Of a DNA stretch of 64,000 nucleotides, positions 2,836 to 61,620 are shown in pieces. Under the pieces are notes generated by a model. That model saw nothing but the letters and a program-made list of their open reading frames with translations, had not been told where the DNA came from and made no database searches. The stretch is from the NCBI RefSeq assembly GCF_003144195.1, contig NW_020290035.1, positions 131,532 to 195,531 on the forward strand, given 5' to 3'. Made by a program: the position numbers and the translations under genes. Source of the DNA: Ceraceosorus guamensis (lineage: Eukaryota; Basidiomycota; Exobasidiomycetes; Ceraceosorales; Ceraceosoraceae). The first letter of the stretch is position 1; each line of letters begins with the position of its first letter.

Positions 2836-4103
2836 ATGTCCAGTGTTGCAGCCAGCGCAAGCGCAAGTCTGAACCCTCTAAGCATCGACGTGCAGAATAA
2901 GTGGAGCGACGAGCTCAACTTGGCCATGCACGACAATGACTCTGGGCGCTTCACTCGTCTAGAGGAGCTCGAAACTGCGCACAGAGAGGCTGAGTACGAC
3001 AGAGGTGTGGCAGAAGAGCGCGTTAGAGCCAGCGAAAGGGCACGCCAGCGCTTGTCCTTCATCCAAGTGAGTGCTTCTGGTGAGGGCCGTACTCGCATTC
3101 CCTTCGCTCATGCATACTTTCATGCCCACAAATCCGCGCAGATCCGACGTGATCTTTCTACTGCTGCAGCTGCTGGGCTGACCATCCCAGACGAGAGCAC
3201 TGGATACTGGCTCGAAGCGCGTAACAGCGAGCGCAGCAAAGTCAACAGCCAAATGTTCTCGGTAAGTGCGAACCCACAAGCGTCAGTCAAGGGACAGCCA
3301 GGATCACATCCGCTGACGCTCCGTTCATATCTTAGGCGCTCTTCGAACGTATCAAAGATGTTGCTCCAGAGCAGCTGAAGCAAGCTTGTGCCGATGTTGA
3401 AAGGGAATTCGGCATCGAGCGTGCGCCAAAAGACTCTGAAGTCCAAGCAGAGACCAACCATAAGAGCAAGACCAGACGAGGCAAGAAACGCCCTCGCCTT
3501 GCAAAAAGCCCAAGTCCATTTCCAACTCAGAAGTTGGCAGATTCGGAGGCGGGCGACCGTACTCACGCACAAGAACGTCAATCAAGCATAGGAAAGAAGG
3601 CAGAAGACTCAGTGACACGTCCTCTAGATCTCCATTCCGTTCACTCTCGGGCAGCACGTGGAGCAAGCTCTTACCACGCATCGGAGCTTCGCAGCGGCAC
3701 CAGGTGGTCTGAGGCTGGCTCCTCTTCAGCGCCTCTCGACAAACTTGACTCTTCATCTCGCTCGTTGGACGCGGCAACTTCGACACCCATATCGAGACGC
3801 GTAGCACTCCAAATGCAGTCAGCGACGTCAGCCTCTCTACGATCCTACGCCGGCATGGCTGCCTCGCCACCCGCACTCGAGAATTCAAGTTTCAAGCAGC
3901 ATTTGCAATCTCCACGAGGCAACGGGGACCCTTCCTCTCCTCAGCACGGGTCTTCAGTAAGTCAATCGGCCTCTCAGCTGGCTACATGCAGCTCCTCTAC
4001 CGAGCTCGACGTGGACAAGGATGAGGATCTTGTGGGCCTAGGTGTACAGCTGGGTAGTGAGTCGTTGATCAGCCATCTAGACGACATTCAGCGAGCCGAC
4101 TGA
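2836..4103 (+). CDS. Three-exon coiled-coil family gene A, 372 residues
   Basis: Exons are 2836-3066, 3142-3261 and 3336-4103, giving 77 + 40 + 255 residues. Both introns (75 and 74 bases, GTGAGT..CAG and GTAAGT..TAG) are phase 0. Intron 1 has no stop, so retention would also read through. Exon 1 is helical and charged (residues about 22-76, with LEELETAHREAE). Exon 2 starts IRRDLSTAAAAGLTIP, which lines up with exon 2 of the genes at 15614 and 18942, with Ile at position 1 and Pro at position 16. Exon 3 carries a basic run, KSKTRRGKKRPRLAK (about 160-174), that looks like a nuclear localisation signal, then a long Ser-rich disordered tail. I chose ATG 2836 over 2797 because it follows the pyrimidine-rich leader and gives an exon 1 of the same length as two relatives. 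No known domain is recognised; a nuclear role is inference. Confidence 0.7.
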
Positions 4104-7100
4104 CCTAGTTTCGTATTTTTGCACCCTCGACAATATCAGATATGAGAGCCTGATATCCTTTGGTGTGAGGCAATTCAGCGTTCGCTCTTGTTCGATGCTG
4201 GATACGGAGGTTTACCCGGACTGTAAGCGCGAAGAACATTCATAGCTGACCCTGCGAAGAAGGAGTCGGGTGCTAAGCAGGCCATGAAGCCTCAGTCATA
4301 CTCAAAGCACGGCAACCTCTCAATTTGTTCCTTTCCGAATACTCCGAGAACCTGGCTCACCACGTGGATGTCGTAGGCCCTCGGGAAAATCGTGCCTGTC
4401 CACCAGGCTCTCGGCGGCCGCTGGTGATAGCAGAATAGACCGATCACAATGACCGACTCTGTGAGGTCTGATGAGCACATTCTTGGGCACCACTGTTTGC
4501 GTACGAGCGGCTGAAGGTAAGCATTTTGGGGGGCGGGTGAAATTTTGCCTTCAATGCGCGTGAGGGAGACCTTGTATGCATTCCTTCCACTTTAATTTGG
4601 CGGCTCCTTTCCGCTTTCACCCGCGTCGTCCAAGAGCGGCATGTCACTGCGTGCGCTTGACGTCTGTGGTCTTCTTAACATGGCTCTTCCATGTTTTGTT
4701 GAGCAGACTCAAGCGCTGCTCGTTCCGTCATCGAATTTCTCGATCATCAGCGAAGAAGCGCGCTGACTCAGGGCTTGCAAGATTTCCCTCGAAAGCCTTC
4801 CGACGACTGAAGCGGATCGCTTTCATTCCCCCATATTGGGCTGTTCAGCCTCACTTGCGACCAGCAGTCCACTTTTGCTTGCAATGAATGCTCTTTGAGG
4901 ACAATATACTGACTCTAGAAATCCAGCATTCGGGATCGTGAATGGGAAGAAAGAAACGATCTTCTTTGGTTTTCGCCGAGTTTCGAATGACTCCTCGCGT
5001 CGGCGCGCGCCTCGATGTCGGGTGATGCAAACATCAGCTTGGCTTGATCCAGCAGCTACATGTCACTGGCTGATCAGCCAAATTGGAAGCTGATCATCAG
5101 TCCGGAAATGACTCGAGGAAGCCCGCGCTTTAAGATCGATGAGCCCCCCAGGAGGTGATTCCGATCCGCATTCAGGCGCACGAGTCGAGAGACTCCGCCC
5201 GTGCATCGCTTTCTTTCCGGCTCTGAACGCCCCAAGTACTAAGAGCGGATGAGGATTTGCCTGGCCAGCTTCAAACATGGCTCTGATGCGTCAAGCACGA
5301 GGGCAGCCATTTGAGTGCCAAGGAGCGAGTAGCCTCGTGATCGTACCGCTCGCCAAGATCGCGTCCCCTATGACTGCCACCTGCTCGACACTAGAATGAA
5401 TTTTGAAGTGGCTCGCGAATGCCTCGGGTGTAGCTTGACAAGCATGACAACACAGTGTGAGTGGATGGATCAGTGAGTCACGAAGGGAAGGAAGTGTCCG
5501 CGCACGCGCCCTTTGAGGATGCTTACCGCACACGTACCCGAACCGGGCAGCACAGCCTCACGCATCTCCTTGTTCCAAGCCACAGATCGGACGCCAAGCC
5601 GCGGGCAAACGCGTCAGCAGCGGGCGCGCGGGCGGGGAAGAGGCGTGCATGCTTCGGTCGACATCGGCCGACCCCGTGTAGCGCGACCAGAGAGCTAGCT
5701 GGGCCGGGGCACAGGCCGAGCAACACGTGACCTGATGGGCACCCCCGTTGGATCCTTGCCCCACGATCGTGAATCAAAAATCAAGAATCAAAGCATCACG
5801 AATCACGTGAATGGCGCTTCGTGAGTGTCGTAGGCGAGACAGACATCGTTCTCTTTGCTAATTGATTCAAGATTCAGAGGCGTCTTCTTATTTCAAGATT
5901 TTTCGATCCCAAATGGTTGGTCAAAGAACGGTGTGCCCAGCACAAGAAGTGGATGCAGCTGTGCCATCGGAGGAGTTTTGGACAGCTGATCGGCGTCCCT
6001 CGGCCTCAGTCTGCGGCGCTAGCTGAATCGCCGGATTGGCACGGATTTTCGCGCACAAATGCAAGTTCACGCTCGAGCTGTCATGGACTTTCTTGCTCTT
6101 TAGCCTTCCGACTAAGACTCGACTGCTGTATGATCATTTAGGTACGTGAGCATCAAGCCCCGGCCATTCAATTGAATGATTGCAGTAGCGACTTGACGAC
6201 CTGTGGCTCTCGATGAGGCTGTGCGCATCAGACGATCAGCATCCCGTCACGTGATCTCTTTTCGCGAGCGAAATTCGGATATCTCGGCCGCATGCATGTG
6301 CACGGACGGCTCGACGCGTGACGCGACCAGCGCGAGGCTTGCGCGCGGGGGCGCGCCCTACAAGTCATGGGTACACGACTGTGCCTACCTGCACGGGGAT
6401 GGATAAACTCCGGGCCGTTCTTAGCCTGCCTCTGCTCACATCGTACACCATCTCCCCATCTCCCAGACTTTGCAACCGCGCATTCATCAACACAACGTTC
6501 CACCACACTGTACACCATTCTGCCAGAGCATATCTTCTCCGCTCGATCTCCGAATGTCCTGCAAATGCTGTACAGACTCCCCAACCTTTTTCGCGCTGCT
6601 GCACAACTGCCCCACTGCGGAGATATCTCAACCAATCATGATGCGACTCCTACCTAGTCTCACAGATCGAGTGAGGGTTCGGCACCAGTAAGGGGCGCAG
6701 AACCAGTTCCTGACGCTTCTACAACTCGCATCGTTTGTCAGACTGCTGGCTTAGTGCGGTCATCATTTCACCTCATCGAGCATGCTGTCGGGCAGCGCAC
6801 TCTCGGCGAGGCCGCGCTCGCACGTTTGCAGCCATCTCAAGCGTCTTTGCGCATGACATGGCCCCTACATCGACCTGACTCATCGAGGGCCACTTGGAGG
6901 TCTTGCAAGATAGACCGAGACCGGAAGCGAGCATGAGGTGCCCTCTCCCACTTAACGTTGCTCCCCATTCATCTTTGACATCGCTTGGCTGCCATCATGG
7001 CTCAGGATATCTCAGGCAAGTCTTGGAGCGGAGAGCGTATTTGCACCTGCAATTGCTGATACTGCCCGATTGCTCCCAGCTATCGGCGGGAGCTGGACTT

Positions 7101-15613: not shown

Positions 15614-16988
15614 CTACTTCTTCGTCCTGTTAGAAGCCGGACCCTTCCAGCCCTTTGGTCCGCTTGGAGGGTTCGCGGAGCCGGAAGCTGCCGACACTGA
15701 TGTCGACTTCGGGCCGCTCGGAGGGTTCGCGGAGCCGGAAGCTGCCGACACTGATGTCGACTTCGGGCCGCTCGGGTGGGGAGGAGCGGATGAAGAAGGG
15801 AACCGAGAACCCGTTGATTTGGGGCCGCTCGGGGGAGGAGGAGCGGATGATGAAGGCAACCGAGACACTGCCGACGTTGCATGGGGTCCGAAAATCAAGG
15901 GAATCGAAGTCGGGATTTCGGAGGCGGAAGCGGCAGCAGAGGGCGAGAGAGCGTCACTAATGGCCAGGCCGGAGGGGGTGGCAAAGGCAACAGATCCAAA
16001 GGCGGAGCGGGTCAAAGTAGGGCCAACCCTCTTGAACGGCACTTGGTCTGCTAGTGGGCTGTTTGTGGGCGGACGCTTGTTCCCACTGCCACTGCCCTGT
16101 GCCGCAAGAGGGGCATTGACGTCCTCTACCTGGTCCAGAACGCTCTCCTCTTGCGGTTCCTGTTTGACCGTAATTGCAGGGCCCTGCTCTGTGGCGTCTT
16201 CGTCATCAACGCTCTCCGAAGGGCCAGCTTCGTCAGGGCCTGCTACCTCTCCTAAAGGTCTAGGCAACAGAGCCTTAGCGAGTGCCTCAGGCAGTCTGTC
16301 GAACCTCTTCGTCATCTCCTCCATGACCAGATCGAGAGTCACCTCTTGACTCCGGACACGCCCCTCCTGGGCGAGCTCCTCAATCGCTTTAGCCTGTAGG
16401 TAATAGGTACAGTAAGAACGCTAGCTATCTCAGAAGCACGGCTCTTCAATGTCACGTATGCCGCACGCACGCGTGCATACAAACGGACGATCGCATGTAG
16501 ACACCTTCTTCATCACTACTACCACCGAATAGATGACTCAGAATGTCGAATCGAACACTCACTCCTATGAGACCTGACAAGCACTTGGCGTGCTCGGCTT
16601 CGCTGTTGAATCGGTGCCCAGGCGGCACCGTGATCCTCAGTAGCTTGGCTACGTCGGACATATTTTCGATCTGGGGATTCGGTCAACAGAGCGACTAGAA
16701 AAGTCAGCATGGGAGACCCGCTACCAACAAAGCCGGGTTTCGAGGTGCGCGACTCACAGCAACTTCAAGGTTGTACGAATTCACAAGACTGTAGGCGTGC
16801 AACCACTTCTGGTACAAATGCGAATGGGCCTCTGTGAGGCTCTTGATGTACGCCTGGTGGCGCAGGCGCTCGCTTGTGGGCAGATTTCGCTGGATCTCCT
16901 TGAGTCCCTCCTCTGCCTCCTGTGACTGCTTTAAGATTTGTGGGTCCACTTCCATCTTCGCTTTGAGCTTTGATTTTGATTGCGGCAT
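15614..16988 (-). CDS. Three-exon coiled-coil family gene B, 372 residues
   Basis: On the minus strand exons are 16988-16758, 16670-16563 and 16393-15614 (77 + 36 + 259 residues). Both introns (87 and 169 bases) are phase 0 with GTGAGT donors. Exon 1 starts with a Lys/Ser-rich tip, MPQSKSKLKAK, then helices with LPTSERLRHQAYIKSL. Exon 2 (IENMSDVAKLLRITVP, then AKCLSGLIG) aligns without gaps to exon 2 of the neighbour at 18942 (IETLAMVADYFDLCMP, then IKCLTHFVG). Exon 3 begins helical, becomes acidic, has a Val-Lys-Gln-Glu motif at about 189-192 that fits the SUMO-acceptor consensus, and ends in a Pro/Ser/Gly-rich tail with an 18-residue tandem repeat. It is the same length as gene A. It lies tandem with and downstream of gene C. 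No known family is recognised. Confidence 0.75.
15660..15775 (-). repeat. 54-bp tandem repeat inside gene B
   Basis: A 54-base unit is repeated twice almost perfectly, with further decayed copies towards 15860. It encodes an 18-residue Pro/Ser/Gly/Lys unit (PPSGPKSTSVSAASGSAN). Because 54 is divisible by three, copy number can change without shifting the frame, so this tail is likely length-variable between strains. Confidence 0.7.
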
Positions 16989-18941
16989 CGTGAAGCGACC
17001 TTAGAGTCAAAAGTGTTTCGTGTGATGGACTTGGGTGGTGATCAATCGTGAATGCGTGAAGAAAGGGACGCGTCTGCTGAATGGTGATGGCAGAAAGCAG
17101 GCAGTTCACGGCGCGCCTGGATGCAGATGGTCGTATGGCCTAGCAGACTCGCGAATCAGACTTCTGAACGAGCGTCCAAATTCGCCAGCACCAGCACGGT
17201 CACCACTTTGAGCGAGTGCGCTGAGCATCTGCTGCAGGCAGCAAGCCAGCAAGGTCGAGCAATTAACACGCACCGCATCAGCCAGTCGCCGCGGCTGCAA
17301 GCGTGACGAGGCACACGTCCAGCACGCGCGCAAAGGCTGCCAACACGTCAGCCCCAATCGATTGATTGGTGCATGATCCATCTTCAAACAAGAACGCGAC
17401 ATGATGCCAAAGCTCTGCCTCGCCCGAATGTGACTCTGCTCGCCCTGAAGGCCAATCTTGAATTAATCAAAATTACGTGATGGCGAATGGGTGACCACGG
17501 ATCTTGGCTGCGATCTGTACTTGACTCGCATTTCAACCATTTTGACGCGCAACCTGTATTTATGCATCGCGTTCAGAAGTCTACTCGTATTCTGTTCGGC
17601 CGAGTATACGACCCCTGGTCTACTAGCTGACCTTGACTCAAGGGATAGGTCAGGGCTCTTCTACATGCGAAGAACATGTCCATGATTGCCGCAACTTCAA
17701 AGATGCCTGCCGAAGTCAGCCCTGCTTGGCGGATATCGCAAGGGGCGTAAATCAGTCCGAGAGTGTCGGAACACCTTATTCTTCCTCAAAGTCTGCGACT
17801 CCAGGCTGCCAAGTGAGCGCTCTTCATCACCTTTCATCTAAATTCCGCTTCACGGAGGTCGAGCCGCATTTACGAGCAGTGCATGGCACATGGCCAAAGT
17901 CGAGACAAGTGGTGTCGCGCATGCGCTCATGCATGCATATGTGCATCAGATCACACGCACGCACTTGCAATAAGACGCCATCATCCAACTGTTGGACATC
18001 GGCGATAGTGGTGCACGCAATTCACCGCCGCGTTGAGTACCAGAACATACGTCAGGCCGAGCATCGTACGGCCAGAGAGTGCTTCGCTGCCATCCTCCGT
18101 TGGGAGTCTCTGCGTGTCGGATACTCGTTCGGGAAGATCTGTGCCCTTCGGCTCGTTATTTTGCCGCAAGCCAGGAGTGTGTCGAGACGAAAGTTGCAGC
18201 TTGCTGCAATTCAGCCAAAAGTCTTGTCTGTCATCGTGCACAAGGAGCACTGAGTTTCACCACGCTTTAATTAAGAGTGATCATTCGCAGCCAAAGAGTG
18301 TGTATGTATAGACGCAAACCAGGCAAAAAGGAAAGCAAGCAAGCATGTGATTTTCGCGAGGCAAAACTATACGGCTTCCCCCCTGGGTTCCCCGGCGTTA
18401 TTTTTATATTTAGTTTCACAAGGTGGCTTCGAACCTGATCCTGGTCTGAGCAGCGCGTTGAATAGTTTACCTCAATCGGCCGCCTGCAGCTTCACGCTTG
18501 CCGTATGGCGCGCGTTTTATCCAAAAGTGCGCGCGTTACAACTGCAGCACGTCCCAAAGTGGCAAAAATTAGAGGGCGCGGCAGGCACATAAACAGCTGC
18601 GAACCTCCTTCATGGTATGAGCGACACATACATCATGATCCATCCCACAACTCTCGCCACCCTCTCATGGAGCTCACAGTGTGGATTCACGAATGGTGAA
18701 ATTGCGACTATCTGATTGACAATGTGACTGTCTAGTCTTGAGTGGCGCAAAGCGCGGTGTTCGATTCTATTCACAAGAGTACGACCTTCATGACGATAGA
18801 AGTACTCGTTCATACCTGCAGGCGAGGGCAGCGCTCTCTTGAAAGCACAAGTTGATTCAAAGTTGAGTTGATGGAGGCGCTCGATCAAGTCTTGTCGACG
18901 AGCCAGGTCAGCCACGTCCAGGGCGCAGCCATTAATTGCCG
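16989..18941. other. Intergenic stretch between genes B and C
   Basis: The first 80 bases upstream of gene B are its likely promoter. An open frame at 17633-18253 (+) is 206 codons long but has no supporting structure. On the minus strand near 18420-18480 a GGTTCGAAGCC sequence resembles a tRNA B-box, but no cloverleaf can be drawn. Nothing else is recognisable. Confidence 0.35.
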
Positions 18942-19826
18942 TCAAGCGAAGTGATCAGGCGCGGCCAAGTCTCCCTGGACCTCCGAGTCCTCCTTGATAG
19001 GGACAGCGTTGTCGCGGGCCGGTGGCTGCATAGAGGTTGCTGGATTCTCTTGAAAGTCCCACTTGTATTCATCCGTGGTGAAGGTAGCGAGCAGGTCGGA
19101 GAGCTCGTTGACCTTGGCGATGACCGCCTCTTTGCTCATGCGGGCTGCTGCGCGTCGGACCTGCTGTTTCTTTACGTGGTCCTGCGATCATGGCGAGTTG
19201 AGAGAAAAGTTGTAAGTGTCTGACCCACCTCATTCTGCGTTTCGACTTATCCCGACAAAGTGCGTCAGGCACTTGATGTAGTCCATGTCACTCTCGAAAG
19301 CGCCACGATTCGGCATGCAGAGGTCGAAGTAATCGGCTACCATAGCGAGCGTTTCAATCTGCAGAGGGCAGAGGAGAAAGAAGAAGAAGAAGGAAGGGGA
19401 GAGATGAGGTCTTCGCAGTCAGCGGGATGATTTTCACTCGCTGATACAAAAGCGTTAATCGTCCTGGTTGAGCAGCTCTCCCCTTCCAATACACCAATTG
19501 AGCCAGCTGACGTTGACCGAAACCACTTTCGCTACCCAGTGTATGCGCACTCAGAAGACAACACTGGCACTCACCATGCTGTCGATCTGAGAAAAATCGA
19601 GAGTTAGAAGCACGTAGACTGCTTTGTGCATCTCCTCGACATGGCTCAAGGCCTTCTCGATCTGTTGCAGGTGAACGAGAAGCATCAGGCGCTCCTGCGG
19701 GGGCCGCGACTGAATCATGCCGTGGAGAGCCTCAAGCGCCTCTTTCCCATTGGTCACAATCTCTTCGTTGAGCTTGAGACTTCCGTTCAGCTGCGGAGCT
19801 GGAGTCGGCGGAGGAATGTTGGTCAT
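18942..19826 (-). CDS. Three-exon coiled-coil family gene C, 199 residues
   Basis: Minus-strand exons are 19826-19575, 19358-19251 and 19181-18942 (84 + 36 + 79 residues). Intron 1 is 216 bases with GTGAGT and a strong pyrimidine tract before CTGCAG. Exon 1 has a Pro-rich tip then helices with RPPQERLMLLVHLQQIEKAL, matching the SERL helix of gene B. Exon 2 aligns residue for residue with exon 2 of gene B. After that exon the sequence is ATAAGT where every relative has GT, so intron 2 (69 bases, ending ATCGCAG) would be an AT-AG intron. The phase and the length of exon 2 argue that this is the real boundary. Exon 3 starts basic (KKQQVRRAAARM) and ends acidic with an Ile-Lys-Glu-Asp site. Either the gene uses a rare donor or it has lost correct splicing. 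Confidence 0.62.
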
Positions 19827-26620: not shown

Positions 26621-26845
26621 CGATTTTTCGAAGTTTGTATTGCGCGCTCGGGGTCGATTTTGCGAACTTTGTATTGCGCGCCGGGGGTCGATTTTGCGAA
26701 CTTTGCATGGCGCGCTGGGGGTCGATTTTGCGAACTTTGCATGGCGCGCTGGGGGTCCAAATTGCGAACTTTGCATCGCGCGCTGGGGGTCCAGATTGCG
26801 AACTTTGCATCGCGCGCTGGGGGTCCAGATTGCGAACTTCGCTTC
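26621..26845. repeat. 34-bp minisatellite, about six and a half copies
   Basis: GCGAACTTT-type anchors recur at 26662, 26696, 26730, 26764, 26798 and 26832, with a diverged first copy anchored at 26628, exactly 34 bases apart. The unit carries the GC-rich core GCGCGCTGGGGGTC. Because 34 is one more than a multiple of three and the unit lacks stops, several frames on both strands stay open across it. This produces long spurious open frames of up to 142 codons. I see no evidence that the array itself is translated. Confidence 0.92.
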
Positions 26846-27659
26846 GCCGGCCGCGCTATTCAAGAATGCGAACGCGGGCGACTCTGCGTCCAGGAGCATA
26901 GAATACTCTCGACTTTCTGTTTACACCGCCTAAAGCCGTTTGTCCGCGTCCGCGCCCGTCCGCACCGTCCGCGCCATGCGAACGCGCTGTAGGGTAGCGT
27001 GCGCGCGGCATGCAGCTCAGTCCTGCTGCACGAAGTCTGTTGAGTGACGTATTTGACAATCACGTGACCCGCGGGACGTGACGGAAATTTGAATATCGTT
27101 TCGATTTGAAAGGAGCAAAGTGAGTTTGCGCGGGAGATTTTGAATTGCGTACGCGTTTTTAGGAAATGGTACACTGCGCGCCTGCAGGCCGCACGTTTCC
27201 GGGGAATGGTACGCCTGTGCGCGCACTGCCCGCTCGAAGACCAGACTTTCACATTTTAGGCCCGTGCGCGGCGCGCCTCGAGAATTGAAGAGTTGGCATG
27301 ATCCTTGAGGTGACAAAGCTATAGCTCGTCTTCCCACCCTGCGGCTTCCCTACCGTAGTATTAAGCAAGCTTACTCCAAACACAGCGCACTCTATTCATT
27401 GACCTGATTGCCGCTCTCACACTCGCTTCACAGGGACACAGCAAGTCCTGAGCTGGAGTGATGGCGCGCGTCGGGAAGGCTCTGCGCGCTAGCCGCGCCG
27501 CGCGCCCTCGCGAGAATGCAGCATCCACAAGCTATGGGTCAGCCCACCAAATGACTCATCGTCGATGCTGGGAAAGCTAGACACCCGACACCCTCACCAG
27601 GGTCTCATTCTTGCACAGTACATAATAGCTCGTACACCGGCTTTGCACAGCACATTACA

Positions 27660-30904: not shown

Positions 30905-31290
30905 TCAACGATCAGCTTGCTTGTCTGCTCCCTCTGCGGCTCGGCCCGCGAGCAGGGCGTCGATGATGGCCTGCAACACATGACAGCGGTCAGAGAAGTG
31001 GACTAACTTGATACAAACGAATAGAGACTCACATTCAAGCGCTTGATTTCTGCCGCTTGGGTTCGCACCATTTCCTCCTGATTCTTCATACTCTGGGCCT
31101 GAGCTTCGCAAGCCTCGATGGTCTCAAGGGCCCGCGCCATACCCTTTCCAGCCTCGCGAAGCCTCTCATGCGCGTCCTCCAGCTCTGCCTCGACCTCGTG
31201 CGGTAGAACATTCAAGCCAGACACCTTGATTATGACGTCTACATTGTGCTGGAGCGCGGCACGCCAGCTCTCTTGAGGTGAGTTGCTCAT
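30905..31290 (-). CDS. Two-exon coiled-coil family gene D, 107 residues
   Basis: Minus-strand exons are 31290-31033 and 30970-30905 (86 + 21 residues), with a 62-base phase-0 intron (GTGAGT..TTGCAG). Almost all of exon 1 is predicted helix. Residues about 36-86 (EAELEDAHERLREAGKGM and onward to AAEIKRLN) have coiled-coil heptads. The segment W..AL..N, then GL, LP and L..AHE..R.A parallels the gene at 37723. The second exon is a short Ala-rich tip without the acidic tail of its relatives, so this may be a shortened member. ATG 31290 was chosen over alternative upstream start codons because it matches the size of relatives. It is divergent from the gene at 32094. Confidence 0.62.
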
Positions 31291-32093
31291 CGTGGAAGAT
31301 ACTGAGTACGTAGCTACGGAGGAAAGAAGGGAAGCGAGTGCTTTAAGAGTGAGTGCTGGAGACATTTGTAGCCCGAGAAAGACAGGCACCGATGCTCACC
31401 TGGTTGAAAAGTCTTGAGTTGATACGCAAGTGCGACAGTAGACGGGGGAGGGAGTTGTGGAGAGTGTGAAGCGAGAGTCGTGCGCGCGAGCTTCTGCCGT
31501 GATCAAAACCAAGCAGTCAGGAGCGTAATCACTTCATCACAGATTTGAGTTTCGATCAAGGCTCATCAAGACTCAAGACTCACTGATTGGTCGAGCGCGC
31601 TTTGACAGTCACGAGTGATGGCAGTACACGTGCACGTGCCAATGCACGTATGGCTGAGGCGCTGCCTAGAGTCGTGAGATGTGCATCAGCATTCAACGTC
31701 CTTTGACTGACTGGGTGCCTAGTAGGTCAAACTTCAGCAGCTGAGCAGTCAGCGCATTCACAATGAGCATTCGTAATTCTGATTGTGTCGAGACACCATG
31801 TTGTTGCTCTCGCACGAGAGCGTGGACAGCGGCGAGCGCGCGTACCAGCAAGCAGGTGTTGTTCTTGGTTGTTGGGTGGAGGCGCTCCGGGCGTCGACAG
31901 CGCGTCGACTGTCAATCTTGCCTGCATGACGATCCTCGCGCGAAGTCACTGAGTGGAACAAACGCTGGAGTGCTTCGAGTCCAATTAGCTCACTCACCAT
32001 TCGGGACCCAGATCTGCTCTCGTCTTGACTTCAAGCCAGACACTCTTCCCGCGTCTAGCCCCTCGTCATTTCTCCAACGCTGCTTCAGCAAAG
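31291..32093. promoter_or_regulatory. Shared divergent upstream region of genes D and M
   Basis: About 800 bases lie between two family genes pointing away from each other. It contains AAGACTCAAGACTC near 31570, palindromic ACGTGCACGTGC near 31626, and a CT-rich leader just before 32094. Co-regulation of the pair is plausible, but this is inference from the arrangement only. Confidence 0.4.
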
Positions 32094-32988
32094 ATGCCAA
32101 AAGTAAAGAAGTCTCTTGGTCCCGCCTGGACTGCGCTCGACTACACAGTTCGCACCATCAATTCCAGCTCGCACATCACCAATGTCAACAGGTCTGAGCT
32201 CCTGAGCCAGTACACGGAGGCACGCGCCGATCATCTGGCTGTCGCAAAGCGCTGCAACGACTTCAGTCAGAATGCAGCTGCTCTGATTGCCGAACGCGAT
32301 CAAAGCAATGAGACTCTCCGAGCTCGCGAGGCGGAGATAGCCAGACGCGATGCGGAGATCGCCGCGCTCAAAGTACGTGCGATTCTCTTTCCGAGCAAGC
32401 AATGGCTATAAGAAGTGACTTAGACGTCTTGTGCTGATGCGCGCATCCTCTCTCACTCAGGAAATGCACCATCAAGACCAAGTCATCCGAGCACGCGATG
32501 CTGAGATCAGCAGTCTTAAGGTACGTCTCCCATTCCATAGCAGCAGCCAAGATGATCGGCCCATACTCACGCGCGCTGTCTACATCGTTCTGACTGTTCC
32601 AAACCACCAGGATGAGGCCATCCGAGCACGCGATGCAGAGATCGCCAGGCTCAAAGTACGTCAAGCTCCCTCAGCAGCAGCTGAGATGATCGATCTCTGC
32701 TTACGGGAATCTCTTTCGCAGGCGCTTCTGGAAGGACATGACATCGGTGCGCAAGTCAAGCAGGAGGACAGGCCGTCACCCGAGATGGAGGAAGTCCAGG
32801 TGAAAGACGAAGTCTCAGTCAAAGACGAAGATGAGGAGAAAGACGAGCTCATGGAGGATGAGCTCGCATCGGATACGGAGGTAGATGAGCTCGGGGAGGA
32901 CGGATGCTCGTCTTCACGTGGCTCGGACGCTGATGACGAAATGACAGACGCGACGATCACGGGAGACCACGAATCCATGTTTGATTGA
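32094..32988 (+). CDS. Four-exon coiled-coil family gene M with repeated exon cassettes, 216 residues
   Basis: Exons are 32094-32372, 32461-32520, 32611-32655 and 32722-32988 (93 + 20 + 15 + 88 residues). All three introns (88, 90 and 66 bases) are phase 0 and all start GTACGT. Exon 1 begins MPKVKKS and is helical. Its end, exon 2 and exon 3 each encode the same coiled-coil unit (LRAREAEIARRDAEIAALK, VIRARDAEISSLK, AIRARDAEIARLK), so exons 2 and 3 look like tandem copies of one cassette. Exon 4 is acidic (DEEKDELMEDE and similar) with three Val-Lys-x-Glu sites at about 140, 155 and 161 that fit the SUMO-acceptor consensus. Function is unknown; a nuclear scaffold-like role is a guess. ATG 32094 follows a CT-rich leader. 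Confidence 0.75.

Positions 32989-34026: not shown

Positions 34027-34028
<2 letters not shown>

Positions 34029-34079
<51 letters not shown>
34029..34079. repeat. Uninterrupted run of 51 A residues
   Basis: The run is pure A, preceded by CCAAAAACT and followed by TGCAAAACTG. It may be the tail of a retroposed transcript on the plus strand, or the oligo-T end of the tRNA-like element on the minus strand. Runs this long are also prone to assembly error. The open frames through it (poly-Lys or poly-Phe) are artefacts. Confidence 0.95.
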
Positions 34080-34081
<2 letters not shown>

Positions 34082-37656: not shown

Positions 37657-37722
37657 TGCAGTGACTTCTTCGCACCACTTCACGCATCTTTTCGCGCCTC
37701 GTCTCCGCCTCCCGTCGAAGTC

Positions 37723-38196
37723 ATGCCGCACAAAAACAAGCACAAGTGGGACAACTCTTTCGACAACCATGCAAAAAACGTAAAAGCTGCGGTCAAGACT
37801 GGCTTGCTGCCAGGAATCCTCGCCAGGCAGCTCGCGGAGACCCACGAGAACACTCGCAAAGCGCACCGAGCGCTTCACCAGTCCTCCGAGGCGCAAGAGG
37901 GGAAGCTGAAACGAGTGATAGTGGCTCTAAACGAGGAGAATGCGCGACTGGAGGTGAGAACAGGGCACTTAGACAGCTTAGTGCGACCTCGCTCACCTCG
38001 CCTGCTCTGTGTCGACTCTCGATAGACGTGCATCGCTACTTCGGACGCTCAGCGCACGATCAATGGTGACACGTTGGTAAAAGTAGAGGAAGGGCACGAG
38101 GAACAGGGTGTAAAAGTAGAGGAAGGAGACGAGGAACAGGATCATGAAATGGAAGAGGAAGAGGATGAGCTTCCGAATGAGCCAATTGGTATTTAA
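37723..38196 (+). CDS. Two-exon coiled-coil family gene E, 133 residues
   Basis: Exons are 37723-37953 (77 residues) and 38026-38196 (56 residues), with a 72-base phase-0 intron (GTGAGA..GATAG). The intron has no stop before its own end. The N-terminus is Lys/His-rich, MPHKNKHKWDNSF, then a long helix with TGLLPGILARQLAETHENTR and coiled-coil heptads ending NEENARLE. Exon 2 is acidic and contains an 11-residue tandem repeat (VKVEEGHEEQG, then VKVEEGDEEQD). Each copy carries a Val-Lys-Val-Glu site fitting the SUMO-acceptor consensus (about residues 95 and 106). Exon 1 has the same codon count as genes A and B. A three-copy ACGT array lies upstream. No known domain is recognised. Confidence 0.75.
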
Positions 38197-42885: not shown

Positions 42886-42921
42886 ATTCACATTCACATT
42901 CACATTCACATTCACATTCAC
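42886..42921. repeat. ATTCAC microsatellite, six perfect units
   Basis: Six consecutive ATTCAC hexamers lie inside a larger cluster of GATTCA-type words. They are non-coding and probably length-variable. Confidence 0.95.
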
Positions 42922-44282
42922 ATTTCCGAATCTGTTCTGATTCAAGATTCACATTCGAGGTGATTCGACAATGAAGATCAACAATTCATCATTGGAGACT
43001 TGATTCACGACTGTTGAATGTTGACTTACGACCAAAAGCTGTTGCTCGGTGGTCGCTATAGCTCGAGACTCGCGTGCCGCCAGGACGCGAAGGAGACGAG
43101 GCGCGAGGGTGCGGTCGGCTGCACCTCCTCGAAGCGTACATACCGGCCGTGTTGCGCACGCGTGCTTAGCACCATTCTGATTCGTGATTCTGCACCCACG
43201 TTTGACCTTTGTTTTCGTCAACGGACACGAGACTGCTGCAGCATCAAATCAGCTTATTCAGGCTCTTGCTCTCGAGATGCCATTTTGCAACGAAGCTGTA
43301 GGTTCGGACAGCCGGGTGCAAGCAAAGCAAAGCTCGCATCTATGTTCCAGTGCAACATTCACGATTCAAGATTGATGAGCAAGTCAAACTTCCGCTCGAA
43401 CTTATGCCCACCTCTCAAGCTGAGCCCACAGTTGTGATCGAGCGCTGCAGGGTCGTAACGTTCAGAATGGCGCGCGCCGCAGGTATGGCGGTGAGATACG
43501 CGGCACAAGTGCGAGTTGCCTCGCGCGCTGGTGGAAAGATGAGAGAGCGGGCTCGAGGCGTGGCGCGTCCGCGCGCCTCCCTGCATTCAATTCTCAACGA
43601 CTCGATCCGTTGAGCGGTATTGGTCGTCCTGGTTGTGCGCTACACTCATCCACCTCGATCGCTGTCATGAGTTCAATCGCAAGCATCGTTAGCTTCGAGC
43701 CCGCACTGCCGCTACCACAGGTGCATCTTTTCGAAGGGTTGGCCGCTCGTCCTACCCGCCTCTGGCTCCTACTGCCTCACCATGCATGGCTGCTTCACCT
43801 ATCTCCGCAGGCTTGTATGCGCCAGATGACCTCGAGTCCCTGCTGTCAGGCCAATTGGCTCTGACTGCGCCTCAGCGAGATGCCTGCCTTGTTACCAGAA
43901 GCACGATGCTCAACGGTCAAGGTGCATGCAGGAATGCTTTCCCACCCCACTCGCGAGCCTCGCTCGGACCACCTTCCCCCCCCTCGCCTCCTCCGCTTCG
44001 GATATTTAACTTTTGCCCTTCCTCACATGGAGTTCTCCAAAGTCGATGCCCAACCCCTTTGTGCTTCCCCGCGACGTCACTTTTGACTGTTGCGCTTCCC
44101 TCTCCCAGCATCTCGAGTCCCATCGAAGCAAGCTCAGCTTCAGCTTCAGCAGCTCAGCATACTCGACACAAGCACGAATCAGTTGGCTCTCATCAAGTTC
44201 TCTCAAGTCAGTGCTTGCCACATCTGTCCTTTCGTACGCCTCACGACTGACTTTACCTCCCCGTTTCGCTTTCGAACAGACC

Positions 44283-45257
44283 ATGTATAGCCAATCTGAA
44301 GACAACTTATCGCGCAAGCGACCTCTCGAAAGCCCCGAGTCGCCAGGCAGAAGCGCGCGCCCTCATCAGAAGCAAAAGGATGCAGAGGTAGCAAGTGTGG
44401 AGTTCTTGTCAGAGGAATGGTGGGATAGGCACGATCATGAGCAATTCATGTGCTGGGGCGAGGCAATCTTGTCCAATGCTCAAGCCGAGCTCGATGGCGA
44501 GCCAGCGCGGATCAAGGGTGGGAACAAGAGCAGCGGGTCGCATGATGGGGAAGACGGTGGAAAGGATGGGGAAGATGCTGGAACAGACGAAGAAAGCGAG
44601 GAAGAGACGGATGAGGGGGAGGAGGAGGAGGAGCAGGATGAGGGAGAGGAGGAGGAGGAGGTACACGAGGAGGTCGAGCGTGACCAAGGGAGTGATCAAG
44701 CTGGGCAGAACGCAGAAGTCTCCCAGCTAGGTGATGATGTGGGAAGCCAGAGTGAGTCATATAGGCCGTCAGCAATAGCGTGTTACCTTGTCACTGACAT
44801 GCACAACCTTTGAGACGCAGATGACACGGAGAGCGATGCGCCCATCACTCCGAACTTTGGCGCCGCCCCTGGTGTCGTCGGGCTCGGGATCCACAAGGAG
44901 GGAGAGCATGTGGAGGAGGGAGAAAGTAATACGGGCGCCGCACCTCCAAACTGGCCCCCGGTGGAGGAGGAGGATTACTCCATTCCCCCTGGCTGGCTTC
45001 GCTGGACGAGGTACGTAGTCGCAGCCACTGACGTCAACGTCAACGTCAACTTCGTCAAGTCGAGCTCACACTGTGCTGTTTTTTCCACCAGAGCACGACA
45101 TTATTAGAGGTCAAAGCGTAGACTGTATTTCTACAACCCAAGCAACGAATCGTCGACTCCTTGTCTCCATCGTGCGGGCGTGAATTGCTCGAGAGCCCGG
45201 ACGAGTCACTGCGGCAAGCCATGCAGCACTGGAGCGCGTGCTCATCGGAGACCGTAG
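44283..45257 (+). CDS. Acidic protein with a WW-like segment, 268 residues
   Basis: Exons are 44283-44751, 44821-45010 and 45110-45257. Intron 1 (69 bases, GTGAGT..GACGCAG) is phase 1 and intron 2 (99 bases, GTACGT..TAGAG) is phase 2. A basic tip (SRKRPLESPESPGR) is followed by EEWWDRHDHEQFMCW, a very acidic run of Glu and Asp (about residues 90-135), then SIPPGWLRWTRSKRRLYFYN across the last junction. PPGW plus YFYNP is the first half of a WW domain, a module that binds Pro-rich ligands. The second Trp expected shortly after is not there. The last acceptor is my choice: an alternative at 45091 gives a stop after five residues and no WW-like reading. Coding-like sequence continues downstream in other frames, so the 3' end is uncertain. 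Confidence 0.5.
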
Positions 45258-52801: not shown

Positions 52802-53685
52802 ATGTCCATGAACGTTGATGGCAGCAGCACAGACGTCCTTTTCGTAGACCAGACCCTCGACTCTCTGAATAACTTCGTCAATTTTGATGAAGTGTGTCCA
52901 CACGGCTGCACTCTCCACACAGCTGCCCAGGATTCAGATGGGAGCTGCGACGAAACTACCAATGTGGGAGAAAATACGATTGATGGTGCTACGAGAGTAA
53001 GAAACCGACATGCCAGCTTCTCTTCAGGCAAAGCATTTGCACAACTGGCTGGCTAGTCTTCAGCTAAGAGTTCTTTGGCCGCATTAAATCCTAGATCCAC
53101 TTGGCAGCCAAGGTCGAGACCGCTTGAGGACGAGTCCCGTGCAGACGAAGCTATCCGGCTAAAGCACAAGGTTACACAAGCCTACCGAGCCTGGCGCCTC
53201 CAAAACGCAAATGATGCTATCGTATGCCAAGTATTTCATCGTAGACCTCGAGTCTAGCACTCTGAAGCTAAGGTGCGCGGTGACATTGCTGCACATTCGA
53301 GCGTTTCGCGAGCGCTAACTCTCTGGCGAATCGTCTGTACTTCTCAGCGATACCGCAGGCAAGCTGGAGCATCGAATTCTCTTTCGAGGCCCTTCAAGGT
53401 CAAGCCCTGGCTCTGATGACTCAGCAATGGCGTTGGGCGCATATAGACGCGCTTGTCACCTCGGTAGCGAGGTAACAGCGTCGCGCGCGCGAAGCCTCTC
53501 GAGAGTATGGCGCCCGCTATGCTCTTCCCTCGACACTGTTGCTCGGCTGGTTCGAATGAGCTCGAAGCATCTCACACTGCAGAGACTCATCCTCAACGAC
53601 GCCACCTACATTCTCGCCCGGCGATGTAGCGCTCCCTGCGTCCCCTCGAGCCTCAGATCAGCTCTTGGCATTCAACACGGCATGA
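52802..53685 (+). CDS. Four-exon gene with a C-x3-C-x-L-H motif, 191 residues
   Basis: Exons are 52802-52996, 53057-53221, 53359-53471 and 53583-53685. Introns are 60, 137 and 111 bases (GTAAGA..TAG, GTATGC..CGCAG, GTAACA..CTGCAG), phases 0, 0 and 2. The joined frame reads smoothly. There is an N-terminal part with QTLDSLNNFVNFDEVCPHGC followed by T-L-H (residues about 18-41), an acidic linker, then RSTWQPRSRPLEDESR, a helix with AIRLKHKVTQAYRAWRLQNA, a second helix SIEFSFEALQGQALALM, and a Ser/Pro tail. The Cys-x-Leu-His ending after a Leu-Asp-x-Leu stretch faintly recalls the Cys-rich MCSS segment before the SANT and SET parts of Enhancer-of-zeste proteins, but the rest does not match. I treat it as unknown. 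Confidence 0.5.
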
Positions 53686-56600: not shown

Positions 56601-57596
56601 CAGGGCCATCACGCCCGGCGCTAGTCGTTGAGACCGATGCCTGTAGGGGCACCATTGCATGGCAGCTCAGTCTGCATCGTGGTGGTCTCAAGGGGATGTT
56701 GACGGCTTTTGACCCACCAGACGGGGACAGATGCTGTATGTTTCTGCTTCAGCGGACAGAGCAGTCAACGCGTCAGCCGGCATTTTTCTGGAACCCGGAC
56801 AAGCGCTGCATGTATTTCGCTTTCTGCAAGAATCTCTAGTCCCCTCTTGCGCTCGACTCACCAAAGATGGCCAAAGATGGCCACTGGCGGGCATAGAAAA
56901 GGGTCTTTTGACAGTTTCGTTCTTGACAGACCGCCGACCTGGACATTGATGTCGAAGGAGGTGAAGTCGAAGGCTACGGAATAGCTGGCAAATTGCGAAA
57001 AGTTGAATCCTGACGTGGTCCTACTACAGCCTTGTTGCTCGATGGCCCCGGACTGACCACCACAGGCATCCGAGAAGCACTTCGACACCCGCATCGTCAC
57101 AAGAAGACGAGTGGGTCATAATTGACGGATGCAAACATGGTTCAATTGCTGCTGAATGGAACATGAAGGGCAGCGTCTGTCAGAATACGCAGCGGTCGTG
57201 ACAGGACTTCCAAGCCTTCGATTACGCACGTGCTTGTTCCAAGAGCCCTAATGTCGCTAGCAGCGTGACAGGTCTGCATTGCGAAAGAGAAGCGCCCGCT
57301 ACCGTTTTAACGCTCTACTTTGCCAGGTGCGGCCAGATGAGGTTTTGAGGAGCCCTCCGCAGTTGATCCCTTGGCCCACGAAGGCGCAGCAATGCTCAAG
57401 CGTGTCAAGCCAGATAAGGCTAGAAATCACTGGGCTGCTCCATTCGTACGCTGCAAATGAAGACGAGCCTCACAGGCAAAGAAAGAAAAAAAACGCGCTG
57501 TTAATCGGAAAGCCTGCGGGCAAGGACTCCTGAAGGCTCATGTAAGAAACGAGCTTACGTATTCGACACAAAAAGCCTAGACGTCCAGCGTCAGTG
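53686..57596. other. Gene-poor stretch with coding-like scraps on both strands
   Basis: Weakly coding-like frames lie at 55228-55599 (+), 55332-55111 (-), 57100-56858 (-, with NFSQFASYSVAFDFTSFDIN) and 56691-56386 (-, ending FVKDYLQAVNIRAEI). The last two could be exons of one minus-strand gene, but the junctions are not clear. A tandem AAAGATGGCC pair lies near 56865. Confidence 0.3.
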
Positions 57597-58128
57597 ATGA
57601 GCAACAGAAGGCTCAACGCCGCGAGAACGAAAGGCCATCCTTCGAGCGTGCCTGTGAAAGTGACTTTTCTCGCCTCCCAAGCCGCTGCAGCCGCTCAAGC
57701 AGCATTCAACCGGCAAGTGCTAGCTTCTACGCTGAAAGATCGGGTCGTCGGATTGGTCGGTGGACTGCAAGCAAGAGAGTGCGCACTCGTATCTGGCCAT
57801 TACAGAAGAGAGTTGGCAGCTGGCATAGATCTTTCAAGGTGACGCCAGATCGATCTGATATCTTTGCAAATAAGAATGCGAATAAGAAGGAGGAGAGAAA
57901 ATGAATGCTCCTTTGGTGCAAAGCCTGCAATGCAACAAAGAGATAGAGCTCAGTCCAGTGGTCTGCAGCCCTCACGGGCTCGTGGCGAGTCTACTCACCA
58001 AATTGAGCTCTAGGCTTTCGGATGCCGCTTCTCAAGAGCACTTCTACGCGTCGGACGAGTCTTTCCACTCGGTGGCTGTCAGAGATGGGGCACGCAAAGA
58101 AGCTTTGGCTGAAGAACCGAATTTCTAG
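57597..58128 (+). CDS. Possible two-exon gene, 133 residues
   Basis: Exon 1, 57597-57838, begins MSNRRLNAARTKGH and continues as an Ala-rich helix (ASQAAAAAQAAFNRQVLAS). Exon 2, 57969-58128, encodes LVASLLTKLSSRLSDAASQE and a polar tail. The 130-base intron (GTGACG..GTCTGCAG) is phase 2 and the frame joins cleanly. The basic tip followed by helix recalls the family genes, but the intron phase differs and no motif matches. The donor is weak, so the model is tentative. Confidence 0.3.
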
Positions 58129-59404
58129 AACGACTCGCGAGCAGGTGATGACGGAAAGTCTGAGACGACGAGGTGATCTTCACGCCTTCGTGAGTCTGGC
58201 AACTCCAAGCCACTGTTGACTGCGACTAGCCAGATGGCATGGAGTAGAATAGCTTGTCCAGTCGGACGAGGCATTGCAGTCACTTCCCGTGCTGTATGTC
58301 CTATAGCCTGCTTGTCAAACGGTTCGGCGTTGCATACGTATAGATGGAAAGCTGAATTGAGGTTGCGCTAGGCCGATCGCGCTGACCGCAAGAGAAACTG
58401 CCCTGGTGCGGCGCTCGCCATTCTCATATTGCGCCCATGCCCTTGGTTGAGCACCGCCACGATCCTCAGACTACTGGCACGGGGCCAGACGCTGAGGAAG
58501 CGTGAGAGTCTATTTCGTGAGTGGGTGATTGGCGCCTTAATTGATGTAAGCCTGAGGCGAAATTGATGAGGTGAGTGAAGAGCGCACGGAGAGAAAATTC
58601 GTGGCATGCTACAGCTACTATAGCACGCAAAACTGGTGCTATCGCAGCTTTCGAATAGCCACATCTTCACGACGACCTCGCACTCATTCTCCGTGCCTCT
58701 CCTGAGCATCATCGTTTTCCAATCGATCGCTACTCAAGACTACGACTATTGATGATGAGGTCCTTGCACGGCAGTCTCCTTTCAGCGTATCGTGTGAGAA
58801 CTCAAGACTCGCTGTTGAGACGAAGCCCGACGCACTCGACTTGGCGGGGCTCAACCGTTCCCCACTCTGTCATGGTCTATCCCACTCAAGACTATCATCG
58901 TGGCCGATGCTTGTCCCCAAAGACCACGTGCTAGCAACACAAGACATGGCAAGTGCCAGTCCGGTCGGTCCCAACAAATCTAACGTTCACCCTGCCAGCA
59001 CCCAATCTTTGGGCAGCGGACGACTCGAGTCTGGGTGCACAGAAGCAGCAGGGAGCGTGCCTGCTTACACGTGCTACTGCTATGCCACCTCGCACGCGTG
59101 CGGCTTTGCGAGCATCGCGCCTGGCTCGGGCGTGAGCGCTCAGTCAAGGTGAGTGTGCATCTCTCTGTTGGGGTGCAGGTACTTCAGAAAGCATCTACTA
59201 GCTTCATCATGCACACTGCTATTGTGCTGGTTTAGCGCACGTCGGTGTGCAAACTTGGGGCGGCGCTTCGCACACCACGAACAGGATAAAAAATCAAACC
59301 TTGCCACAAGGCCATCGCACCACGATTTGACACGACCATCCTCGACTCGACAACTTTAAAAAGCATTTTCCCAGCTTACATCACCAGACTCAAAACACTC
59401 CATC
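58129..59404. other. Intergenic stretch upstream of gene G
   Basis: No gene structure is supported. A TTTAAAAAG sequence at about 59355-59363, roughly 45 bases before the ATG at 59405, is TATA-like, and the leader after it is rich in CA and CT. Open frames at 58368-58712 (-) and 58841-59152 (+) look like chance. Confidence 0.35.
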
Positions 59405-60260
59405 ATGCCTCTTACTCGCTCAGCTGCGGCAGCGGCCGGTCAGAGCCTCACGGTCCCCGGCCTTCAAATGAAGGAATGGGTCAACAAGAAGGAGAAGGAA
59501 GGTCTCTCACAAAAAGACCTCCCTGACCTCCTGAGGCACCGAGATGCTGTGATCGACAGCATGAGACACCTCTGGGTCAAGACGGAGAAGCAGGACGCCG
59601 AGGCCGAGCAGCTTCGCAAAGAAATTGCGCACCTCCAAGCACAGCTTGCTGAAGCGAACGTCGCCGCCGCCGCCACCGCTTTAACACAGATCGTGAGTAG
59701 CTTTAGTCTCATCATCCCATTCATGATCGCCAGCAAAGTGAAGTGAACGTCATTTCGGTTACTCACACCAATGCTCGTTCGCTTCATATTCCTGCATACA
59801 GAGAGTCGAGGACACAGCCGGTGGGAGTGAAGAGAGTGGGGTATCCAACAACGGGGGCGCTGAGGACTCGGAGGAAGCTGAGGTGAAGGGATCGGTGGAA
59901 GCGGTGACAGAGAGCTCGGTGGAGGAGAGCTCGGTCGAGAAGAGCTCGGTCGAGAAGAGTTCGGTCGAGGAGAGCTCGGTGGAGAAGAGTTCGGTCGAGG
60001 AGAGCTCGGTGGAGAAGAGCTCGGTCGAGGAGAGCTCGGTGGAGGTAGAGGCGCCGGAGACAGCGGAGGCGCCGGAGGCGCCGGAGGAGACTGAGACAGG
60101 GGAGGGAGACAGCTCGGCTGTGCCGCAGGAGGAGTCGAACTCGGCGAGCGCAAGCGCCCCGGAGACAAGCTCCGAGGTAGGCAACTCTTACGAGTTCGCC
60201 AGGCGTTTCTGGGGAGACGAGGTTCTGGGTATCTGGCCTTCTTCCTCTTCGTCCGCATGA
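59405..60260 (+). CDS. Two-exon coiled-coil family gene G with SSVE repeats, 248 residues
   Basis: Exons are 59405-59692 (96 residues) and 59802-60260 (152 residues), with a 109-base phase-0 intron (GTGAGT..TACAG). Exon 1 starts MPLTRSAAAAAG and becomes a helix with EWVNKKEKEGLSQKDLPDLL, then heptads (AEQLRKEIAHLQAQLAEA) typical of a coiled coil. Exon 2 is acidic and contains nine tandem SSVE(E/K) pentads, then a Glu/Pro/Ser-rich stretch and a short end (RRFWGDEVLGIWP) that is likely folded. The layout matches genes E and M. A long frame on the other strand is its shadow. It is convergent with gene H 675 bases away. No known domain is recognised. Confidence 0.7.
59913..60047 (+). repeat. Nine 15-bp tandem units encoding SSVE(E/K)
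   Basis: The 15-base unit AGCTCGGTSGAGRAG is repeated nine times without a break inside exon 2 of gene G. Units alternate between Glu and Lys at position five, and the last ends in Val. A multiple of three keeps the frame open whatever the copy number. Confidence 0.9.
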
Positions 60261-60935
60261 TGGGGATGGCCCTTGACCGATTGCAAAGGTGAGTGACACA
60301 TCCATTTGCGTCACATGGAACTCTTGTTGATCGCCACTGCTTGTCCGCGGCTATCTAGATCCTTCCATCCTCGACTGCCACCTCACGGACTCCCGATTCT
60401 CACGATTTCGCGTATTTACCGCTCTCTTCATCACCTTTTCTGTGTCAAGCCCCTTTTCGCAAGCGACGGTTCAACAGCATCTGACCATGGTTACCTCTCC
60501 CAACGCGACTGCTGAGCCGAAATGGCAAGGCTCGCAAATGTCTGACGATACGAGAAGTGAATGCATTGCGGCAGTGATAAGGGTTTACTAGGCTTGGGCC
60601 GGGACGTGGCCTTGATCAAAGACAGATTCATTTGTGATCGTTAGAAAGTCGCTCCGAGCGAATCGTTATGCTCTGCGGAGAAAGTTGGTTCTTGTGTGCG
60701 GTCGATCAAGCGTAGATCCGTGTATATGCCGAGCGAAAGCTGAGGTTGGGTTGGCTTTAATTGCTTCTCACTTCCCGCAAAGCGCCTAATCATTGGTCAG
60801 GAAGAAAGATATTCGAGGAGAGTACGAGGCGGATGCGCGCGATCCTTGTGTCCAGTGCTTGATATACTCTTGACAGTCTACAAGAGGCTGCTACCGAATA
60901 CTGTATTGCGCCTGGTCTCTTTTCTCCGATGCCGA
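60261..60935. other. Convergent intergenic region of genes G and H
   Basis: About 675 bases between the 3' ends of two family genes. No open frame with support and no clear repeat. It should hold both poly(A) sites, but no clear signal is seen. Confidence 0.35.
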
Positions 60936-61620
60936 TCAAAGACAATGTGAATTCAAGCACGCCTGAGAGGTAGTGGCAAAGCTACGCATGGCGTCCAGGG
61001 CCGCTTTCTGCCGGAGCGAGTAAGACGCGACAGATGCCGTCAGCCGTAAGTCTTTTTGAAAGCCGCAACGCTGAACAACTGCAGCAGCAAGAGTGCTTAC
61101 TCACGTGTGCAAGCTCGCTGAGCTCCATGTGGTAAGTGAGCTCCTCGTCAATCGACTTGAACGTGGACTTTTTGGCCCTCTTCATTCCCAAGTAAGCAGC
61201 TCCCTTGCGAGCAACGCGAACCTGAGTTTCGTCCGCAAATGGAAGCGATCAATTGGGGATATCTCGAGCGAGTCAATCGAGTCGGACACTTTGTTCAGCT
61301 TGCGGGGAACTCACCAGCCTGTAAAGCAGAATTCCGCGCTTTTGAGTATCTCCAGTCAGTCCTCCAAGCAATGCGAGTCTCAAGATCCTGCTGGTTTGAG
61401 CCAGGTACCTCGCTACAGCCTGTAGACGCGCGCCTCTGGCACTCTGCAGCTGAATCATGCGCTCGTGTGGAGTGTAGCGACTGTAAGCCTTGATGGAGCG
61501 GATCAGTCGCTCCGTCAACTTTTCATTCTCCAAGGAGAGGTCCAAAGTCTCCGTAAGCTCGTCGACATCGATGCCTCCACTACACTCCGAGCGCTTGTTG
61601 CTTTTGTTGCGCTTGCCCAT
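60936..61620 (-). CDS. Three-exon coiled-coil family gene H, 164 residues
   Basis: Minus-strand exons are 61620-61315 (102 residues), 61221-61105 (39) and 61007-60936 (23). Both introns (93 and 97 bases) are phase 0 with GTGAGT donors. The basic tip MGKRNKSNKR is followed by helices with TPHERMIQLQ, comparable to PPQERLMLL in gene C and PTSERLRHQ in gene B. Exon 2 (VRVARKGAAYLGMKRAKKST, then FKS..DEEL and ELSELAH) can be aligned with exon 2 of B and C, sharing Ala, Leu/Phe and a Phe-x-Ser-x-Asp/Glu pattern. A GTACCT donor within exon 1 (61408) followed by a CAG near 61320 offers an alternative shorter form. The third exon is less certain. The acidic tail is missing. Confidence 0.55.

What the first reader, a model, noticed from the sequence alone, without database searches (positions are those of the whole stretch)
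2836..61620. A dispersed family of small intron-bearing coiled-coil genes, possibly undescribed
Eight genes (2836, 15614, 18942, 30905, 32094, 37723, 59405, 60936) share a plan: a short, often Lys-rich start, a helical or coiled-coil first exon of 77-102 codons, phase-0 introns only, and mostly a disordered, acidic or repeat-rich tail. None matches a family I know. They are scattered on both strands in otherwise gene-poor DNA, in tandem, divergent and convergent pairs, as expected of a lineage-specific expansion. Phase-0 introns and the plan are seen in my models; homology is judged by eye; function is unknown.
Basis: partly seen in the sequence, partly recalled or inferred. Interest (0 to 1): 0.8.

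Follow-up and report, generated by a model that had tools for sequence, protein, structure and literature searches.

The report
Orphan genes whose copies decay
Eight small genes of the leaf fungus Ceraceosorus guamensis, taken at first for one new family, show a secure relationship for only one pair, and broken copies of two of them elsewhere in the genome carry C-to-T changes concentrated at TCG, so a mutating genome defence is likely what keeps these genes single-copy.

Summary
The window is contig C40:131532-195531 of Ceraceosorus guamensis. All eight models can be read. Four have NCBI models: one identical, two differing by one or two residues at a splice junction, and 32094 with an extra 5' exon. 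None reaches a Pfam cut-off. The single-family reading fails: only 15614 and 18942 are secure paralogs, with matching intron positions. 30905/32094/37723 are weakly alike. 59405 has a 65% identical relative in C. bombacis. 2836 and 60936 stand alone. No close intact paralog was found: own-genome searches gave partial or broken copies of 15614 and 32094, and an 18942-like open frame of unclear status, all in CpG-poor DNA. Aligned copies of 15614 and 32094 show C-to-T at 89 of 265 CpG cytosines against 69 of 797 others, TCG worst (43 of 79); the reverse direction shows no excess. This is a Microbotryum-type RIP-like signature, and the genome has a C5 DNA methylase domain. Some controls are mixed. 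In 32094 a coiled-coil exon plus its phase-0 intron has duplicated in tandem. Protein function is inferred.

The parts
2836..4103 (+). g1: exons 2836-3066, 3142-3261, 3336-4103, phases 0,0; 372 aa; no relative found in the own genome
   Evidence: Threaded, one solution; own-genome search with its first 160 aa finds only itself; not searched in the large protein database
15614..16988 (-). g2: exons 16988-16758, 16670-16563, 16393-15614, phases 0,0; 372 aa; NCBI IE81DRAFT_330802
   Evidence: NCBI protein identical; paralog of g3; broken copy at C67:79845-80182
15653..15775 (-). 54-bp tandem repeat coding part of the Ser/Pro/Gly tail of g2
   Evidence: TRF
18942..19826 (-). g3: exons 19826-19575, 19358-19257, 19181-18942, phases 0,0; 197 aa; NCBI IE81DRAFT_348199
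   Evidence: NCBI protein threads exactly; a relative on C118 at about 43686-43877 with an open frame of 177 aa, in CpG-poor DNA, status unclear
30905..31290 (-). g4: exons 31290-31033, 30970-30905, phase 0; 107 aa; no NCBI model seen (too short for the length filter)
   Evidence: Threaded
32094..32988 (+). g5: exons 32094-32372, 32461-32520, 32611-32655, 32722-32988, phases 0,0,0; NCBI IE81DRAFT_330805 starts at 31798 with an extra exon (31798-31855, phase 1) joined to 32059-32372
32461..32721 (+). tandem duplication of a coiled-coil exon with its phase-0 intron (units 32461-32610 and 32611-32721); the 3' end of exon 1 is a third, more diverged unit
37723..38196 (+). g6: exons 37723-37953, 38026-38196, phase 0; 133 aa
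   Evidence: Threaded; no NCBI protein returned although its length was within range
59405..60260 (+). g7: exons 59405-59692, 59802-60260, phase 0; 248 aa; NCBI IE81DRAFT_341966; relative CBOM_05662 in C. bombacis
   Evidence: AlphaFold2 helix 39-102, mean pLDDT 78-96 in the blocks of residues 41-100
59910..60050 (+). 15/30-bp tandem repeat coding SSVEE/SSVEK in the acidic tail of g7
   Evidence: TRF; repeat number differs in C. bombacis
60936..61620 (-). g8: exons 61620-61315, 61221-61105, 61007-60936, phases 0,0; 164 aa
   Evidence: Read by hand; own-genome search finds only itself; not searched in the large protein database

Best explanation
These are eight small genes for proteins predicted to be helical (four with NCBI models, four predicted), of which only 15614 and 18942 show secure sequence relationship, and broken copies of 15614 and 32094 elsewhere in the genome carry C-to-T changes concentrated at TCG, so a RIP-like, likely methylation-driven, defence is likely what keeps them single-copy. 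Shown: the splice structures can be read; no Pfam family reaches its cut-off; the 15614/18942 paralogy with matching intron positions; a C. bombacis relative of 59405; broken or partial copies of 15614 and 32094 with TCG-biased decay while the window itself is undecayed; a tandem exon-plus-intron duplication in 32094. Inferred: new segments arise by duplication of phase-0 exons, which adds helix without breaking the frame; whole-gene duplicates are recognised as repeats and mutated at TCG, so families cannot grow and each gene diverges alone; the proteins likely act inside the cell as coiled-coil dimerising scaffolds with disordered, often acidic tails. The molecular role is the weakest step (about 0.3); the orphan and decay part is the stronger one (about 0.75).
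Against: No methylation, expression or crossing data. The four copy alignments cover two parent genes and overlap (three are copies of 32094); the direction of change is inferred from the asymmetry. The 18942-like frame on C118 is open over 177 aa, so not shown to be broken. Two of the 32094 copies (C118:40321-40440, C28) have no stop in the matched stretch; they are partial. Controls are mixed: the paralog pair C40:34369/102098 has a normal TCG index (0.96, 0.69), and C40:104747, with no paralog found, has a high one (2.88). Relationship among the others may be beyond detection. AlphaFold2 of 18942 is poor (pLDDT 46); neither Foldseek nor the PDB sequence search gives a relative for 59405. 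The own-genome search scores only its best first-look candidates, so paralogs could be missed.
Confidence: 0.65

Rival explanations
1. The eight are one ancient family that has diverged past recognition; the shared plan and phase-0 introns are what remains of common descent.
Confidence: 0.2
2. Some of the models (30905, 37723, 2836, 60936) are chance open frames in non-coding DNA.
For: No NCBI protein was seen for these four (two not searched, one below the length filter, one within it); the automatic predictor gave other end exons for them.
Against: In a crude codon test the proposed frame of the first exon scores best of six in 7 of 8 exons, all four of these included (for 15614 the frame was mis-set in that script); three of the four thread with one GT-AG solution each.
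Confidence: 0.12
3. The genes are remnants of, or passengers on, mobile or selfish elements, such as transposon-borne genes or meiotic drivers.
For: Copies dispersed on three other contigs (C67, C118, C28) in CpG-poor, repeat-like stretches.
Against: No reverse-transcriptase match on C40 among the 7 scored in the genome and no Pfam match among 71 window frames; the copies keep introns and, in one, 3' flank, so they are segmental copies, not retrocopies.
Confidence: 0.06

Closest known systems
Orphan (taxonomically restricted) genes of fungi
   Same: Small, often with low-complexity tails, no domain, restricted to one species or genus in the searches made
   Different: Multi-exon with an excess of phase-0 introns, and one shows tandem exon-plus-intron duplication
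RIP-like TCG-targeted mutation of Microbotryum (passages of PMC6831777, and PMC4352252)
   Same: C-to-T decay of repeated sequence with a TCG preference; a C5 DNA methylase domain present
   Different: Here in Ceraceosorales (Ustilaginomycotina) and seen on copies of ordinary genes; methylation and timing untested. Passages of PMC10849329 report no strong RIP signal in Salmacisia; a table row for Ustilago maydis in PMC7862722 reads '-' in its later columns, which I take as no DNMT found, without having seen the column heads
CBOM_05662 of Ceraceosorus bombacis
   Same: 65% identical to 59405, along the helical exon and across the exon junction
   Different: Shorter acidic repeat tail and no C-terminal SYEFARRFWG segment

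Membership tests
   Only 15614-18942 secure
   partial or broken copies of 15614 and 32094, one 18942-like open frame of unclear status; the first-look filter limits sensitivity
15614/18942 family | Sequence similarity over the first two exons with intron positions conserved | tested here: met
   E 1e-7 over residues 1-102 of the predicted protein; alignments A3/A5 place both introns at or within a few columns of each other
Orphan genes restricted to Ceraceosorus | No relatives outside the genus | tested here: inconclusive
   Met for 15614, 18942, 32094 and 59405 within the word-based search; 30905 and 37723 only as rows of a shared profile; 2836 and 60936 not searched
RIP-like process of the Microbotryum type | C-to-T bias at TCG in duplicated sequence | tested here: met
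   43 of 79 TCG against 46 of 186 other NCG, four alignments, two parent genes
RIP-like process of the Microbotryum type | Duplicated DNA is hit and unduplicated DNA spared | tested here: inconclusive
   0 of 64 one-kb windows of the studied stretch with CpG o/e under 0.6 and multi-copy genes C40:76508/95222/96067 at index 2.7-3.4, but the pair 34369/102098 is spared and 104747, with no paralog found, is hit
RIP-like process of the Microbotryum type | A DNA methyltransferase of the Dnmt1/Masc2 kind | tested here: inconclusive
   PF00145 in two stretches at C19:225460-227229; subclass not determined
RIP-like process of the Microbotryum type | Acts on duplicates during the sexual cycle | not testable with these tools
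   Needs crosses; C. guamensis is known only from its yeast-like stage (passages of PMC11687029)
Secreted effector proteins | N-terminal signal peptide | not tested
   No predictor here; by eye the N-termini are hydrophilic, Lys/Arg-rich in four

The most novel reading that the evidence does not exclude
A TCG-directed, RIP-like mutator works in a smut-lineage fungus on ordinary gene duplicates and is itself the engine of orphan-gene birth: coiled-coil genes grow by duplicating phase-0 exons, whole-gene copies are hypermutated, and the rare survivors are so changed that one old family now looks like eight unrelated genes.
Probability: 0.1. Interest if true: 0.75.

Novelty: new member of a known kind. 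Interest (0 to 1): 0.42.

Why it matters
If a RIP-like, TCG-directed process hits gene copies in Ceraceosorus, gene-family growth in this smut lineage would be limited as in Neurospora (recalled), which bears on how orphan genes arise. An intact single copy paired with its decayed duplicates gives a direct testbed.

Tried and rejected
A single-family reading: tested by shuffled pairwise scores, reversed-sequence controls, hhalign and a profile search; rejected except for 15614/18942. The apparent exon-2 likeness of C40:196322, 60936 and 2836 to 15614/18942, seen by eye, did not survive profile comparison.

SUMO-acceptor idea: [VI]KxE occurs 7 times in the eight proteins against about 1.0 expected from shuffles, but conventional proteins also exceed chance, 7 against 3.3; four of the eight have none. 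Kept as a weak lead only.

Structure: AlphaFold2 for 18942 (pLDDT 46) and 59405 (one confident long helix, pTM 0.30); the Foldseek PDB search of 59405 returned nothing; PDB sequence hits for the 15614/18942 profile are an M protein chain and two GCN4 chains at E 0.0018, 0.04 and 0.17; none for 32094 at E 0.01. NCBIfam gives nothing near its cut-offs for the five database proteins. Rfam and tRNA scans of the window: none. No telomere repeat in the last 2 kb of the contig.

Papers: the genome paper (by recalled DOI) and the Horns et al. 2012 RIP survey are not held, so I have not read them. Searches for Ceraceosorus, RIP in basidiomycetes and in Ustilaginomycotina, TCG with RIP and orphan coiled-coil genes showed, in their listings, nothing on these genes or on such decay in Ceraceosorus; beyond listings I saw passages only, of PMC4352252, PMC6831777, PMC10849329, PMC7862722 and PMC11687029.

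Full report
WHERE IT IS. The window is G000:C40:131532-195531 of a 23.8-Mb genome in 199 contigs. A database protein from the 18942 gene is IE81DRAFT_348199 of Ceraceosorus guamensis on a contig of 201,963 bases, the length of C40. C. guamensis is a yeast-like fungus from a healthy leaf surface, order Ceraceosorales (passages of PMC11687029).

THE GENES. I call the eight g1 to g8 in coordinate order (2836, 15614, 18942, 30905, 32094, 37723, 59405, 60936). Seven proteins thread on the DNA with a single GT-AG solution; g8 was read by hand as three exons. NCBI holds proteins for g2 (identical to my splice), g3, g5 and g7. The NCBI g5 model starts at 31798 with an extra exon and a phase-1 intron, the one exception to phase 0 in the four NCBI models (8 of 9). 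In a crude codon test the proposed frame scores best of six in 7 of 8 first exons; for g2 the frame was mis-set.

RANGE. The g2/g3 profile returned only g3, and the g2 region only g2 (221 and 565 candidates scored). The g4-g7 profile returned g5, g7 and CBOM_05662 of C. bombacis, the last 65% identical to g7 (only the 7,995 candidates sharing most words were scored). g1 and g8 were not searched there. Pfam gives nothing above cut-off for the eight or for ten other predicted proteins of the contig, and nothing at E 0.01 for 71 of the 89 window frames of 120 aa or more.

COPIES AND THEIR DECAY. Own-genome searches found, outside the window, a g2-like stretch with stops on C67; a g3-like stretch on C118 with an open frame (E 0.0026, 3.6e-9 as a predicted protein); and g5-like stretches on C118, one with five stops, one short, and at the end of C28. 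The weak hits of g6 on C88 (E 0.036) and g4 on C5 (E 0.02) are unconvincing. The copies keep intron sequence, and one g5 copy also 3' flank, so they are segmental copies. Taking the window genes as the undecayed state, C-to-T change hit 89 of 265 CpG cytosines (34%), against 18 of 247 CA, 24 of 309 CT and 27 of 241 CC (7-11%); in the opposite direction CpG shows 6 of 98, no more than other contexts. Within CpG, TCG was hit at 43 of 79 sites, against ACG 17/67, CCG 15/56 and GCG 14/63. These are four alignments of two parent genes. The TCG index of Microbotryum workers (definition in passages of PMC6831777) is 0.43-1.42 for the eight genes, 0.58-0.98 for six conventional-looking genes and 2.04-17.73 for the four relic stretches; genes of an outside multi-copy family at C40:76508, 95222 and 96067 score 2.7-3.4. 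Two results do not fit: the paralog pair C40:34369/102098 scores 0.96 and 0.69, and C40:104747, with no paralog found, scores 2.88. Of 253 one-kb windows, 32 have CpG o/e under 0.6 (median index 2.34) and 204 have 0.8 or more (median 0.81); none of the 32 lies in the studied window. The genome has a C5 DNA methylase domain on C19. Passages of PMC4352252 tie CpG-type decay in basidiomycetes to Masc2-like methylases and cite TpCpG in Microbotryum.

VERDICT. Genes that can be read, four of them independently modelled, mostly without detectable kinship, and not a visible expansion. The more interesting fact is the TCG-biased decay of their copies.

Noticed in passing
C40:76508, 95222, 96067 (outside the window; L021, L023): A separate multi-copy family (95222-96067 73.9%, 95222-76508 47.7% identical) with an SPLLGQTPSK stretch in two of them, with low CpG o/e (0.50-0.66) and high TCG index.
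   Followed up: partly
C40:34369 and 102098: Another pair of paralogous small genes (E 3e-17) that is not TCG-depleted, a counter-example to a strict rule.
   Followed up: partly
window 44283-45107: Further predicted gene with an acidic, GAG-repeat-rich middle and a KRP-containing start, no Pfam match for the part scanned.
   Followed up: partly
window 26621-26847: 34-bp minisatellite, 6.7 copies, 92% matches.
   Followed up: no
window 34029-34079: Run of 51 A.
   Followed up: no
C40:196322-196921 (just right of the window, L028): Two-exon, phase-0 predicted gene of 177 aa of the same general plan; no link to the eight found.
   Followed up: partly
C19:225460-227229: C5 DNA methylase domain in two matched stretches.
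   Followed up: no
C40, about the first 7.5 kb: Stretch withheld (reads N) at the other end of the contig, next to CpG-poor DNA.
   Followed up: no
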